Assembly: GCA_031272505.1 (NCBI GenBank)
Contig: JAISTQ010000057.1
Location: 1 to 59,024 of the forward strand
Reading direction: 5' to 3'
Length of the DNA stretch: 59,024 nt
Source: Propionibacteriaceae bacterium
GTDB lineage: Bacteria; Actinomycetota; Actinomycetes; Propionibacteriales; Propionibacteriaceae
Shown: piece after piece, positions 17,376-59,024 of the stretch
Position numbering within the stretch: position 1 is the first letter of the stretch
How the letters are laid out: each line of letters opens with the position of its first letter
Made by a program: the position numbers and the translations under genes
Notes under the pieces: model-generated
Database searches by the model: none
What the model was told of the DNA's origin: nothing
The model's input: only the letters and a program-made list of their open reading frames with translations

Positions 17376-17612
17376 CGGCTGAACGGATTGCCAAATCCGC
17401 TACCCAACCGCTCAAATAGCGGCCATTTTTGAGACTCCCGCCCGAAAGTTGAGACGTCACGTCACCTTCACTTCTCCCAACATTTTTCAAAAAAGCCGCT
17501 GTGCGCAGTTTGGGAGTTTTCTGAGCCCCCAAAAGTGGACAAAGATAGAGCTTGACGAGGTGCTGGCAAGGCTGACAGCCGCGTCGTCCCATCATCCAAA
17601 GAAAGGGAAGTC

Positions 17613-20600
17613 ATGATTTCATCAAAGCTGTCCCGCATTACCCGAGCCCTGGTGGTAGCGTCCGTCGCCGGGGCTTTGGCTGTGACGGGTCTTCCGTCTG
17701 CCCCCGCCGTCGCCGACCCATCTGCGGCGCCGATCTGGCAAGACGATTCGGGCAAATACACTTTTGAAGAGCGGGCCGCCGATCTGGTGTCCCGGCTCAC
17801 CGTCGCCGAGAAATACAACCAACTCCGCGACAATCCCCCCGCCATCACCCGGTTAGGCATCCGCTCCTACGGCTATTGGAACGAGGCATTGCACGGCGTA
17901 GTGGGCTATTCCGGGGCCACCATGTTCCCCTCCGCCACCGCGATTTCGTCTACCTGGAACCGCGGCCTGGTGCGCCAGTTGGGCACCATCATCGGTGACG
18001 AGGCCCGGATGGCGAACAACACCACCAACAAAGGCCTGTCCTATTGGTCCCCCACGTTGAACATCTACCGCGATCCGCGCTGGGGCCGGGCGGACGAATC
18101 GTACGGCGAAGATCCGTACCAGATCGGGCAGATCGGCGCGGAGTTCGTGCAGGGCGTCCAAGGCGACGACCCGACGTACCTGAAGGCCGTCTCCACCCCG
18201 AAGCACTTCTTCGCGAACAACTCCGAGTCGAACCGCCGCCATGGCAACTCGGTGGTCACCGAACGCGAGATCCGCGAGTACTACACCCCGGCCTTCGCCT
18301 ACGCGCTCTCCCCCGAGGTTGGCGCGTACTCGTATATGACGGCCTACAACCGCGTCAACGGCGTGCCGATGACCGATTCGTACGAGTACCTGGACACGCT
18401 GGTGAAGCGCACCTGGGGCTTCGAGGGCTATGTCACCACCGACTGCTCCACCATCAAGGATTCGACGGTGCGGCACCTCTGGGTGCCCGACGGCTGGGAT
18501 CACCCGGTCGACCTTGTGGAGGCCACCGCCTGGGGGATCAAGGCCGGCGCCGACATCGACTGCCAGGATTACTACTACCGCGACTACATGCAGCAGGCCT
18601 ATGACCTCGGCTACGTCACCAACGCCGAGCTTGATTCGGAGCTGCAACTGCTGCTCACCGCCCGCTTCAAGTTCGGCGAGTTCGACACGGCGTCGAAGGT
18701 GCCTTACCGAAACACGACCGTCTATAACACCGCCAACCGCGGCTCCTTGAATCCGGATTCGCAGGCGGTTTCGCTGGCGGTAGCGCACGAGTCTCCGATC
18801 CTGTTGAAGAACAACGCGATCACCTCCACCGCCACCAAGGGCCTGCCGCTCACCGCCGCCGATGACGACATCGTGGTGATCGGCCCGTATGCGAACACCT
18901 TCACCGCGGGCGGCTACTCCGGCTCCGGCCAGACCGACTCGCGCTCCTTCGTCACCGCGTTGACGCAGGTGGCCGCCGAGGTCAACCCGGACGCCACCGT
19001 CACCTATTTGGGCGCGGGCGTCACCCCGGGCAGCGGGTCCGGCAAGCCCGGCGTCCAAGGCGTCACGTTCAAGAACGCCGGCGCCGATGTGCAGACCATC
19101 CGCACCTCGCAGACCGTCAACGGCTATCCGCTCTCCACCTCTGATAACCCGGCTCCCGGCCAGTTCATCAAGTGGGAAGGCTGGATGGGCATCAGTTGGG
19201 GCGCGGCCGACTACATGAGCGCCTCGCAGGTCTGGGGCGGTTATCTGACGGCCCGCGTCGACTTCACCACCATGAGCGCCGACTCAATGTGCATGATCCA
19301 GAACGGCTCGGCTACGGCCGCTCCCGCCGGGGCGGTCTTCGACGTCCACCTGGACGCCATGGACGGGCCGATTGTGGCCACCGTGCCGGCTTCCGGCGTG
19401 GCCGGGGCCTGCGGGCAGCCGGGCGCGGACGGCGCGTTGGATCCGTCGGTGCTGGGCGGCATCCATGATCTCTACATCGTCTGGAATCCGGGCACCTTGG
19501 GCGCTGTCGGGCAGGCGGGCACCGTTGGGCATCCGTGGGCGTACAACTTCACCCCGGCGCAAGAGCAGGTGATTCGGGACGCCGACGCGGTGCTTGTCTT
19601 CCTCGGCACCACCACCGCCCATTCCACTGAAGAGATGGACCGCACCAACATCGACTTCCCGCTCTTCCAGGATCAGCTCACCGCCAAAGTGGCGGCATTG
19701 AACCCGCACACGGTGGTCTGGATGCAGACGGTGGGCCAGATGAACATCGAGGCCTTCCGCTCGCTGACCAACATCCCGTCGATTGTCTGGACGAACTACA
19801 ACGGCCAGCACCAAGGCGTCGCCGCCGCGGACATCATCTTCGGCCGCGCCAACCCCTCGGGCAAGCTGCCGATGACGTGGTACTCGAACCTGGCGCAGCT
19901 CGGCTCGGTCTGGGATTACCAGATCACCCCGGATGCCGACCACTACGGGCGGACGTACCAGTACTTCACGGGCACGGTCTCGTATCCGTATGGCTATGGC
20001 CTGTCGTACTCGTCTTACCAATATTCGAACCTGCGGCTGGACGCTTCCGCCTATGCGGGAGACGACACTTTGACGGCCTATGTGGACGTCACCAACTCGT
20101 CGAGTATCCCCGGCAAGGAGACGGTGCAGCTTTATGTGACGGCTCCGGGCGCCGACGGCGTGAACCGGCCGATCAAGCAGTTGAAGGGCTTTGAGAAAGT
20201 CTCCCTGGGAGCGTTCCAGACGAAGACCGTGGCCATTGAGGTGGACCTCAAGGACTTGTGGTTCTGGGATGACGTGAAGCACTCGAAGACCTGGGATCTG
20301 GGCACTTGGAAGGTCTTCGTCGGGCCGTCCTCGACGATTGGCCAGGTGAAGCAGTTCGAGCTGGTCAGCGCTCCGCTGCCGTATCTCGACGTGGTGCAGT
20401 CGGTGCCGGACGGCTTGGTGTTGAACACCGCCAGCCCGGACACCGTGATCCACTCGAACCTGTCCGCCACCCGCAACGACCAGACCTTCCTCGATCTCGC
20501 CGCTCCGGATGTCGAAGTGGTCTACACCTCCAAGAATCCGCAAGTCGCGAAGGTGGACGCGGACGGCCTGGTCTACCCGGTCAGCCCCGGCGTCACCACC

Positions 20601-42830: not shown

Positions 42831-43093
42831 GCCTCCCCTCTTTCTGCGGTGATGCCTCTTTGCACTTCCGCGCGCCCCGCGTAACCCACTCCCTTCGCCT
42901 AGCTTGGACGCCACCCATTGCCGTCATCCTCGAGCCGAAGCTCGGGGATCTTCGCGCAGTCCGAGAAATGAGTCTCCCGGCACTCATTTGCCGTCATCCT
43001 CGAGCCGAAGGCTCGGGGATCCATCGCGACGCACCGGAGGTGCTTGGAGTGAAACAGAACGCGGGAGCGTAGCGACCACCGCTTCCTCGCGTC
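42831..43093. repeat. Palindromic repeats after dhaKLM
   Basis: No gene is seen. A short copy at 42921-42950 and a full copy at 42991-43074 of the dispersed palindromic family are present. The full one reads CCGTCATCCTCGAGCC-GAA-GGCTCGGGGATCC, then GCACCGGAGGTGC, then GGGAGCGTAGCG. Confidence 0.8.
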
Positions 43094-43632
43094 ACCCCCA
43101 CACCTCCCTCACCCCCTGTGGGAACCCAAAACTACTCAATAGATTGCTAAACTGGCCCTCTTGGAAAACGATTGAGTAGTTTCAGGCCGAAAAACGGCCG
43201 TTTTGGGCCTTTTCGAGGGAAAAATCACTCAATCGTTTTGAAAACAGGCGTTTTCAGGCATCCATTGAGTAGTTTCCCTCCTCACCCCTTTTTCGATGCT
43301 GCGTCCTCACTGGCAGGCCCGACCGCTCCGCCATGGCCGTCTGTTGGCCGGCCCGCACAGCACCTCTTCCCGGCGGTATCGGCCCCAATCCTTCGGAAAT
43401 CACCGGTTTTCAAGAATCGGGGCCGCTCCTGACCGTCGCACCGGGGATCGCTGAGCGTAGCTGGGCTCCGTCCCGTGCGCCGAAACGGCCCCGATACCAG
43501 GAAAAGGCCGAATTCTTCATGATTGGGGCCGCTCCCCCACAAATACGCCGACGCCCTGGCAGGACTCTTCTTCTTCCGGCGGCTGCTCTTGGGGGTTGGC
43601 TCTCCGACGGGATCAAAAGCCGATCCGCCGGA
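43094..43632 (+). repeat. 540-bp structured intergenic element, copy 1
   Basis: Collinear with the reverse complement of 58206-58759. Order: CACCCCCAC...GTGGGAACCC; four ACTCAAT/ATTGAGT motifs around a GGCCGAAAA...TTTTGGGCC palindrome (43129-43276); a GGCCCGC hairpin (about 43311-43357); two hairpins with CGGCCCC/GGGGCCG arms (about 43379-43425 and 43486-43532); then a very similar 3' block from CACAAATACGCCG to GCCGATCC. No frame stays open and conserved in both copies. No gene lies between dhaM and lysC. Confidence 0.88.
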
Positions 43633-43710
43633 AAAGAGGGGGGGGAAGTGGGTTCTGGGGGCGGAGGGGCCGGGCGATTCGAGAAGGCGCGTCCAGGCTC
43701 GTCAGGCGTG

Positions 43711-47162: not shown

Positions 47163-47741
47163 AAATCCTCCTTCTCCCCCATTGTAGTGGACAACCCGCC
47201 CCAGTTTCCGCGAAAACGTCTTCGCACTTCGTGCTCGGGCTCCGCGAAATTGTCCTCGCTGCGCTCGGGCTCAGTTGTTCGCTCCAAATGCCTACGGCAT
47301 GTCGCTCACTGGATCCCCGGCCTTCGGCCGAGGATGACGGCCTTTGAGTGCCGGGAGACCTTCCCTTCGGACTGTGGGTGCAACCTTAGCGGCAGTACGC
47401 AGCATCAGTCTCCACGCAGCCCCCTGGCCGTCATCCTCGGGCGCAGCCCGGAGATCCAGACGATTGAGGAGCGAGGAAGCGAGCTCGCTCATTTCCGAGT
47501 GACGAGTGAGTCTGATAGGCGAAGCCGAACATACGCGCCTGGCGCGAAGCGCTGCGGACCGTAGCGGAGCGAAGGTTCGTTATGGCGCGTTAATCACGAG
47601 TGAGCGAAGCGAACGCGACGCGGAGCGAACGCGACAGGCAGTGAAGACAATTTCGGGCGGGGAGTTTCCGAACTGGGGGAAAGCGGGTAAGATTGCGTAA
47701 TTGGCTGGGTTGTCCAGCCAATGAGTATGAAAGGGCATCTA
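47163..47741. repeat. Repeat-mosaic intergenic region
   Basis: No gene is seen in 579 bp. It holds a full palindromic copy (47278-47340, GGATCCCCGGCCTTCGGCCG orientation), an inverted short copy (47428-47459), and several small inverted repeats of the GCACTTCGTGC or GCGCGAAGCGC type. The string AGGCGAAGCCGA at about 47517 also occurs near 3597, and several GAGCGAAGCGAACGC-type modules lie near 47560-47635. Confidence 0.75.
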
Positions 47742-57701: not shown

Positions 57702-58205
57702 CCGCACCGCCGTCCCAGCCACCGAAGAATGTGCAGTTCCGGCGCTAATACTGCAACTCTCGCCTCCGGAACCGCTCATTCTTTCTCCCTTCCCACTCAC
57801 CTCTCGCATCTCCCCGCCTCTCCACTTCGCCGCACCCCGCACCCCGCACTTCGCACCCCTCCTTCAACCGCGCTGCCCGATGTGCGGGCCAACCGTCTCC
57901 CCATGGCCTGCTGACGGCCCGCGTTGGGCGAAGAGTCTGGGCGCGTTGGCCTGTGGTTGCCTTGACTCTCACCTTCGCGGGCGGCCACCGCCCACCCGCC
58001 TGTCGGCCCACCTCCCACAACCCTCTGTGCCCGTGGTTCAGTTTGCTGCTTAGTTTTATGAAGATCATCATTGATGGGGTTGTGGGGCTCAACCACCGAC
58101 TGGCACCCAGTAGCGAAGTTGCGCCCGCCTGTCCATCCCGGCCATTCAACTTGCGGGACGGTCAGCCCGGCCAGTTTCGGGAAAAGTCGGTCCGACGGCC
58201 AAACC
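57702..58205. other. Gene-free stretch with one hairpin repeat
   Basis: No credible gene. The first 180 bases are pyrimidine-rich. GTTCCGG/CCGGAAC arms lie at about 57734-57772, and a member of the GCGGGCC...GGCCCGC hairpin family is at 57884-57922. Confidence 0.6.
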
Positions 58206-58759
58206 CGGAGGATCGGCTTTTGATCGCGTCGGAGAGCTAACCCCAAAGAGCAGCCACCGGAAGAAGAAGAGCCCGCCCAGGGCGTCGGCGTATTTGTGGG
58301 GGAAGCGGCCCCAATGCTGGAGAATTCAACCGGTTTGCGATTTTGGGGCCGTTTCGGCGGACTGGATGGAGCCCGGCTACGCTCAGCGATCCACGGTCCT
58401 GCGTCCGAGAACGGCCCCGATTCATGAAAACTGGCGTTTTTCGAAGGATTGGGGCCGTTATCGCCGAGGAAGAGGTGCTGTGCGGCGCGGGCCAACGGGT
58501 GTGCATGACGAGAAGCCGGGCCCGCGAGTGGGGCGACCGGCGGATTTGGGGAAGGGGCGGGGGGGAGGGGAGGGTAAAACCACTCAATAGATGCCCCAAA
58601 AGGGCTGTTTTGAAATCTGTTGAGTGATTTTTCCCTTGAAAACCCCTAAAACAGCCGTTTTTCGGCCTGAAACCACTCAATCGTTTTCAAAGAAGGCCAA
58701 TTCTGCGATCTATTGAGTAGTTTTGGGTTCCCACGGGAGTGGGGAGATGTGGGGGGGTG
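58206..58759 (-). repeat. 540-bp structured intergenic element, copy 2 (inverted)
   Basis: The reverse complement follows copy 1 at 43094-43632 throughout. The best preserved parts are the 3' block (58206-58310), the two CGGCCCC hairpins, the GCACAGCACCTCTTCC string and the ACTCAAT cluster (58575-58735). It includes a GCGGGCC hairpin at 58487-58525. No coding frame is shared by both copies. Confidence 0.88.
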
Positions 58760-58764
58760 TCGGT

Positions 58765-58803
58765 GCGGGCCACCAGCCGTCCATAGAGGGAGGTCGGGCC
58801 CGC
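58765..58803. repeat. GCGGGCC...GGGCCCGC hairpin repeat
   Basis: GCGGGCC (58765-58771) pairs with GGCCCGC (58797-58803), about 25 nt loop, just outside the large element. Confidence 0.55.
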
Positions 58804-58951
58804 GAGGGAGGGGCGCCTGACAGGTAAGGGGGTGAGGGGAATGGAGGAGTAAGGGGAAGGGTGCTGTGTGGTGTGGGTGGGTTGTCGTATTGTTGGTGGG
58901 ATTGACGAGAAAAGGGTATTTGTCCACGATTTGGGAAATGTTGGTTTGGGG

Positions 58952-58981
58952 TTGACAGGTAGCACGCCCGTACGATAAGGT
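58952..58981 (+). promoter_or_regulatory. Strong consensus promoter near the right edge
   Basis: TTGACA (58952-58957), 18-bp spacer, TAAGGT (58976-58981): the best -35 in the window. Confidence 0.65.
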
Positions 58982-58996
58982 ATTTATTGTTGGTGG

Positions 58997-59024
58997 ATGT
59001 CAGCGGGGCCATCTACCGGCACCA
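58997..59024 (+). CDS. Start of an unidentified gene (cut by window end)
   Basis: ATG 58997 sits behind GGTGG and the consensus promoter. Nine codons are visible (MSAGPSTGT). Product unknown. Confidence 0.4.

What the first reader, a model, noticed from the sequence alone, without database searches (positions are those of the whole stretch)
43094..43632. Large structured intergenic element present twice in inverted orientation
About 540 bp upstream of lysC aligns end to end with the reverse complement of 58206-58759. By eye the match is strongest in blocks, with GAAGAAGAAGAG...GCGTCGGCGTATTTGTG and GATCGGCTTTTGATC nearly unchanged while linkers drift. Neither copy keeps a common open frame. 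Conserved hairpins with diverged linkers suggest a structured RNA family or a non-autonomous mobile element, of a kind I do not recognise.
Basis: partly seen in the sequence, partly recalled or inferred. Interest (0 to 1): 0.78.

Follow-up and report, generated by a model that had tools for sequence, protein, structure and literature searches.

The report
Mosaic double-hairpin repeats between genes
This bacterium carries dozens of non-coding repeat patches between its genes, built from paired DNA hairpins whose four arms have changed sequence together; they look like small passenger mobile elements whose mover is not known.

Summary
In detail: 43095-43631 matches the reverse complement of 58205-58755 at about 81%, with no shared reading frame and no Pfam family above cut-off. 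It is not a pair but part of a genome-wide set of intergenic mosaic "islands", usually ordered double hairpin, C1, C2, M. The key part is a 156-nt, dyad-symmetric double hairpin (B type in the window, 43378-43533). Subfamilies B, E and F align with gaps only near the ends, and the four arms of a copy change together. Family A (148 nt, 43129-43276) has the same layout. Model search finds 24 places in this genome and 2 convincing copies in 1 of 29 same-genus genomes, a Propionibacteriaceae MAG. Rfam, plasmids and phages give nothing. Y1/RAYT, IS110, DDE_1 and rve transposases are absent from this genome; REP tags and target duplications were not found. The C2-M body shows almost no covariation. 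Best reading: non-autonomous, strand-symmetric repeats, once mobile, shuffled by recombination; mover unknown. New variant of a known kind.

The parts
42909..43631 (+). Island 1: mosaic repeat block in the dhaM-lysC spacer (gene names by eye from the ORFs, not searched)
   Evidence: covered by matches to other fetched segments, depth up to 14
43129..43276 (+). Family A double hairpin, 148 nt, four alternating arms of the type ACTACTCAAT / ATTGAGTAGT
   Evidence: 9 full-length places in own genome; the repeat finder I1, I4
43313..43352 (+). G hairpin region (weak copy of the CGCGGGCC...GGCCCGCG module)
43378..43533 (+). Family B double hairpin, 156 nt, dyad-symmetric; hairpins 43379-43426 and 43486-43531
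   Evidence: alignments A1, A2; model R2 141.4 bits, R2 having been built with this copy
43380..43389 (+). arm M1 (CGGCCCCAAT)
   Evidence: columns 3-12 of A1
43416..43425 (+). arm M2 (inverted)
   Evidence: columns 39-48 of A1
43486..43495 (+). arm M3
   Evidence: columns 109-118 of A1
43522..43531 (+). arm M4 (inverted)
   Evidence: columns 145-154 of A1
43555..43631 (+). Module C1 (CTCTTCTTCTTCCGG and GATCAAAAGCCGATC blocks)
   Evidence: 17 places among the fetched segments; alignment
57710..58815 (-). Island 2: fuller mosaic repeat block near the contig end
   Evidence: depth up to 21
58577..58723 (-). Family A double hairpin, copy 2
58486..58526 (.). G hairpin, copy 2
58304..58459 (-). 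Family B double hairpin, copy 2
   Evidence: R2 138.8 bits
58205..58281 (-). Module C1, copy 2
58027..58199 (-). Module C2 (about 174 nt, not found in island 1)
   Evidence: 21 places among the fetched segments
57942..58002 (-). Module M (GCGGGCGG..CCGCCCGC hairpin)
57725..57783 (-). Module H hairpin (AAGAATGAGCGGTTCCGG.. type)

Best explanation
The two copies are islands of a family of non-autonomous intergenic mosaic repeats. The basic unit is a double-hairpin DNA element of about 150 nt with dyad symmetry: two imperfect hairpins whose four arms carry one motif in alternating orientation, around a 40-60 nt centre. Proposed mechanism: the arms are read as sequence by a trans-acting protein (a transposase or other hairpin- or repeat-binding enzyme, now lost, unassembled or of a family not tested), which once copied the unit between intergenic sites; divergence of that protein's specificity let the four arms change together into the A, B, E and F types. 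Later, homologous recombination between islands swapped double hairpins in the slot before C1 and made chimeras. Shown: copies, symmetry, concerted arms, recurring order, intergenic location, chimeras, presence in one other species. Inferred: past transposition, the protein, recombination as the shuffler, and that A belongs with B, E and F.
For: 24 R2 places in the own genome: 17 of 150-156 nt (two of them reaching a contig end), 5 cut by contig ends, 2 partial (counted by me from 47 rows; contig-end copies may be one copy seen twice). Arms within a copy differ by 0.079 on average, against 0.268 between different arms and 0.261 between the same arm of different copies; 0 of 2000 shuffles as low (13 copies). 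Arm positions C6, C7, C9, T12 and their M2 partners never vary in the 13 copies. 22 copies tested (20 own, contig-cut ones included, 2 G006) overlap no gene called by my simple caller. Of 17 C1 copies found, 13 are preceded by a B or E double hairpin and 1 by A; two lie near contig starts and one (C33:24903) has none. Chimeras: C25 (M1 F-type, M2-M4 B-type) and C47 (B-like and F-like halves, by eye). Copies in G006 with the same layout and an F-like arm but another centre, found by model R1 built without them.
Against: No target-site duplication: mean 2.0 nt against 2.34 in shuffles, 422 of 500 shuffles at least as high (24 copies). No empty site could be shown; the nearest relative by LysC is at 84% identity. 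No Y1, IS110, DDE_1 or rve transposase in the 98% complete genome, so no candidate mover; other families were not searched. Recombination alone, without transposition, could have spread pieces. All but two of the copies in A2 are from one genome, so relatedness inflates the shuffle statistics. Family A shows no covariation beyond shuffles in either pairing.
Confidence: 0.57

Rival explanations
1. A structured RNA family: the islands are transcribed and the hairpins act in cis in mRNA leaders or tails, or as a multicopy small RNA.
For: Folding z-scores -3.7 and -5.1 for the two strands of 43120-43640; compensatory changes in the hairpins, 11 pairs in A1 against a shuffled mean of 7.3.
Against: Two exclusive pairings are supported equally (90.1% and 89.7% of cells; covariation scores 0.426 and 0.406); within family A neither pairing exceeds shuffles; body C2-M has almost no covariation; models score both strands because the element is dyad-symmetric; no Rfam match at E<=1 in 6 loci; islands sit between genes of every relative orientation.
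Confidence: 0.17
2. REP/BIME/REPIN elements mobilised by a RAYT (TnpA-REP) single-strand transposase.
For: Palindromic units in inverted pairs with a spacer, intergenic, several sequence classes per genome: the REPIN layout (PMC3116915 abstract; PMC3733652 abstract and section 14).
Against: No Y1_Tnp in the own genome, while the control rings in 5 of 14 genomes. The GTAG/CGTC tag is absent from most feet: 8 of 52 feet in 13 copies hold one, 6 of them the same foot of six related E copies. Blocks also lie between divergent genes, 6 of the 19 with both neighbours called, while REPs are said to lie mainly between unidirectional or convergent genes (PMC3733652 abstract).
Confidence: 0.12
3. Bidirectional terminators or transcription insulators selected at their places.
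For: Strong hairpins in spacers.
Against: Of 19 blocks with both neighbours called, 2 lie between convergent, 11 between tandem and 6 between divergent genes; several hairpins in a row and a conserved body without supported structure are not needed for termination (inference).
Confidence: 0.07
4. A decayed known transposon, phage or protein gene.
For: Long ORFs by chance in the GC-rich sequence; an ATG-led open stretch in C2 of some copies (by eye).
Against: Frame-breaking indels and no common frame; 8 ORFs from the two islands give no Pfam family above cut-off (one sub-threshold Toxin_7 match, E 0.057, 14.1 bits against a cut-off of 27); no plasmid or phage match.
Confidence: 0.05

Closest known systems
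REPINs / BIMEs (REP doublets)
   Same: Intergenic palindromic units in inverted pairs with a spacer (20-100 bp in most REP dimers, PMC3733652 section 14), several sequence classes, non-coding
   Different: Units of about 44-54 nt against 20-40 (PMC3733652) or 20-50 (PMC8266576 passages); no GTAG/CGTC tag rule; no Y1 gene found in the genome; embedded in an ordered larger island (C1, C2, M)
[quoted passage not shown]
   Same: Composite, modular intergenic repeats (named in PMC3049150 passages; further detail recalled)
   Different: No sequence relation tested; order here is largely fixed; the slot before C1 holds alternative double hairpins
Pneumococcal BOX elements
   Same: Modular boxA-boxB-boxC repeats of 67-637 bp (PMC3049150 passages)
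   Different: BOX varies in number of boxB modules; here the variable module is replaced by a diverged homologue
Double-hairpin elements and GC clusters of mitochondria
   Same: Palindromic mobile units that merge and shuffle into new elements (PMC4478555 abstract; double-hairpin elements seen only in a search listing)
   Different: Organelle; no sequence relation tested
MITEs
   Same: About 150 bp, inverted ends of about 50 bp, non-coding
   Different: No target duplication and no parent insertion sequence found

Membership tests
REP / REPIN / BIME | Palindromic units in inverted pairs in spacers | tested here: met
REP / REPIN / BIME | GTAG or CGTC tag at the foot of the palindrome | tested here: not met
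   8 of 52 feet in 13 copies, 6 of them one foot of related E copies
REP / REPIN / BIME | RAYT (Y1 transposase) in the genome | tested here: not met
   PF01797 no match in own genome; genome is a draft, 98.35% complete
MITE | Terminal inverted repeats, short, non-coding | tested here: met
   arms of 51 and 54 nt, 71% and 74% complementary
MITE | Target-site duplication | tested here: not met
   24 copies, mean 2.0 against 2.34 shuffled; ends are inferred and many copies share flanks
MITE | Parent insertion sequence with matching ends | tested here: inconclusive
   PF01797, PF01548, PF01609, PF00665 absent; other transposase families not searched
Rfam RNA families | Covariance-model match | tested here: not met
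   window, gathering: one tRNA only; 6 loci, E<=1: none
Structured RNA gene | Covariation for one structure on one strand | tested here: inconclusive
   two exclusive pairings supported alike; family A neither; body hardly any
Mosaic intergenic repeats (NIME/BOX-like in kind) | Modules recurring in composite arrays in spacers | tested here: met

The most novel reading that the evidence does not exclude
A separate class of dyad-symmetric double-hairpin elements, whose four arms co-evolve as one recognition code into subfamilies that replace each other in a fixed slot of a larger non-coding unit, spread by an enzyme that is not a REP transposase; a double hairpin with quite other arms in another genus of the family (G034) could be a further branch.
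Probability: 0.2. Interest if true: 0.65.

Novelty: new variant of a known kind. Interest (0 to 1): 0.43.

Why it matters
It shows a REPIN-like layout without the REP tag or a Y1 transposase in an actinobacterial lineage, with arms that change in concert. The subfamilies, their chimeras and a second species make the question of what reads the arms testable. Such islands also break draft assemblies: 15 blocks reach a contig end (contig lengths). My literature searches were made; the listings show no paper that is visibly about this family, which is weak evidence of absence.

Tried and rejected
Rejected: decayed transposon or protein gene; Rfam family; RAYT-driven REP; convergent-gene terminator. 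Model hits in relatives, read by eye: G021 (tandem GGGGACTGTCCCC palindromes), G053 (a short palindrome), G012 four places (one 70-nt palindrome family with CAAACGCCCCCGAA arms, order forward-forward-reverse-reverse), G011 and G005 (no layout seen) were set aside. G034 (same family, other genus; R1 E 0.099) was read last and does hold a double hairpin with four alternating arms, hairpins of about 70 nt, duplicated in tandem with a 193-nt step, but with unrelated arms (AACCGGTCAC); descent from the same ancestor is not shown. The 30-base blastn match in G034 looks like chance in a repetitive coding-like stretch. First genome contigs pattern, from C1, gave nothing. Viral pattern scan for E gave nothing. 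Flanking duplication test gave nothing. The family A model finds only the own genome among 30; 6 of its 29 rows are weak (22-23 bits): 5 on a hairpin of E or F copies, 1 on a partial A copy. lysC upstream spacers (own 910 nt; 25 relatives 24-823, median 116; one further relative gave no value) show only that this spacer is long; the upstream gene differs and the caller is crude. Paper search for JAISTI was useless; the termite search gave a listing only, so the host of the relative stays unstated.

Full report
Observation. The stated match is real and lies where stated, within a few bases: 43095-43631 against 58205-58755 reversed, 81%, E 4e-139; 440 of 537 aligned bases identical with frame-breaking gaps. 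Conservation is blocky: 43555-43631 69/77, 43534-43554 21/21, 43129-43276 125/148, 43378-43533 124/156, 43277-43312 22/36.

Extent. The query gives 40 rows in the own genome of 2,233,753 bases in 67 contigs, itself and its own reverse palindrome included; island 2 as query gives 70 rows and an island of contig C33 gives 57; the three lists overlap and some places give several rows. Self-comparison of the fetched segments shows repeat blocks of up to 1,722 bases. I padded 37 blocks and called genes with a simple codon-usage caller trained on 23 window ORFs: 997 of 25,502 block bases fall in called genes. Of the 37, 19 have a called gene on both sides: 6 ++, 5 --, 6 -+ (divergent), 2 +- (convergent); the window's gene pairs are 17 ++, 17 --, 7 -+, 6 +-. 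Fifteen blocks reach a contig end, so some contig-end copies may be the same copy seen twice.

Modules. Seed searches over the fetched segments only (not the whole genome) count M 21, C2 21, C1 17, H 14, G 13, E 12, I 9, A 9, K 6, B 5, F 3, J 3; the seeds were chosen from these segments and one F row overlaps a B copy. The order double hairpin-C1-C2-M recurs on either strand: 13 of the 17 C1 copies are preceded by B or E, one (C45:18630) by A, two lie near contig starts, one has none; in the window A and B both stand before C1. Many modules contain hairpins of 40-63 nt with different arms.

The double hairpin. Families B (window), E and F align over 156 columns with gaps only near the ends. 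The layout is two hairpins, paired as i+j=51 and i+j=263, and at the same time a single palindrome, i+j=157. Both pairings score alike: 90.1% and 89.7% of cells paired, 11 and 13 pairs with changes on both sides, slid controls 24-51% and 26-47%. With 13 copies including the second species: 88.7% and 87.7%; one measure, further pair types, is then no better than shuffled (245 and 303 of 500). Shuffle controls ignore relatedness. The arms of one copy agree with each other better than with arms of other copies: 0.079 against 0.268, 0 of 2000 shuffles. The arm letters C6, C7, C9, T12 and their M2 partners are invariant in 13 copies. E, B and F share TGAGCGTA in the centre; the G006 copies do not. 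Family A has 9 full copies and 3 partial ones; inside A covariation is no better than shuffled in either pairing, so placing A with the others rests on layout and on weak cross-matches of its model to E and F hairpins (E 0.005-0.009).

Spread. blastn of the window stretch over 60 genomes: own, plus one 30-base match in G034 that looks like chance. Model R1 over the same number of relatives: six genomes with E<=0.1, of which own and G006 hold the element. Model R2 over 30 genus genomes: own 47 rows (24 distinct places), G006 two places at 112 and 105 bits, and weak hits in G021, G012 and G011, which on reading are other palindromes or nothing. R2 was built with the G006 copies in it; R1, built without them, found them at E 5.5e-12 and 3.8e-8. 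The weak R1 hit in G034, another genus of the family (E 0.099), is on reading a spacer with a double hairpin of four alternating arms, in tandem duplicate, with quite different arms and longer hairpins; whether it is related or only similar in layout I cannot tell. A pattern scan of 84,980 species genomes for the F-type hairpin hit only two records, JAISTI010000047.1 and JAISTI010000177.1, titled Propionibacteriaceae bacterium isolate Md513_bin133; their lengths, 13,796 and 10,335, equal those of G006 C119 and C24, so G006 is very likely that MAG and the window's organism a congener (inference). Of three own islands compared with the four G006 loci, only the double hairpin matched, weakly. Both G006 copies overlap no called gene.

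Coding and known families. Eight ORFs from the two islands have no Pfam family above cut-off; one has a sub-threshold Toxin_7 match, E 0.057. Rfam: only a tRNA in the window and nothing at E<=1 in six island loci. Plasmids and phages: no match to 43378-43631. Viral contigs: none with the E pattern. Transposases: Y1, IS110, DDE_1 and rve families all without a match in the own genome while controls ring; a multicopy insertion sequence could be lost from a draft assembly.

Mechanism. Inverted ends, strand symmetry, lack of coding, intergenic scatter, chimeras and patchy presence fit non-autonomous DNA elements. That all four arms change together is what a single reader of the arms would impose; it could also come from alternative pairing of one RNA or DNA strand, or from duplication of one hairpin. 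Against transposition stand the missing target duplications and the lack of an empty site. The recurring order and the exchange of A, B and E in one slot point to recombination between islands. Which strand, if any, is transcribed is unknown.

Comparison. REPINs are the nearest described layout (abstracts of PMC3116915 and PMC3733652; section 14 of the latter; passages of PMC8266576). The tag and the transposase, two defining features, were tested and not met, so I do not file it as REP. The modular islands resemble BOX and NIME repeats (passages of PMC3049150) in kind, not in sequence. Verdict: real, multicopy, not seen in print in the searches named, of a known general kind; moderately interesting.

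Noticed in passing
window 42918-43021: Two direct copies of TTGCCGTCATCCTCGAGCCGAAG followed by GCTCGGGGATC, 70 bases apart, just before the island; related sequence also in contig C65.
   Followed up: no
window 47208-47611: Another repeat block matching other fetched segments, depth up to 7.
   Followed up: no
window 58906-59024: The last 119 bases are identical to the first 119 of contig C52, so C52 probably continues the window.
   Followed up: no
L158:1879-2053 and 2277-2451: In G006 one double hairpin lies between two direct copies (88%) of a 175-nt repeat, upstream of a gene that looks like purA by eye.
   Followed up: partly
L131:1377-1834: G034, another genus of the family: a spacer with alternating AACCGGTCAC-armed hairpins, a double-hairpin unit in tandem duplicate (186 nt, 93%, step 193).
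   Followed up: partly
L133, L159, L164: G021 of the same genus carries tandem arrays of another palindrome, GGGGACAGTCCCC.
   Followed up: no
L165, L167, L176, L177: G012 of the same genus has a 70-nt palindrome with CAAACGCCCCCGAA arms at four places.
   Followed up: no
window 17585-18671: A 1,087-base stretch matches contig C44:2862-3948, probably a paralogous gene.
   Followed up: no
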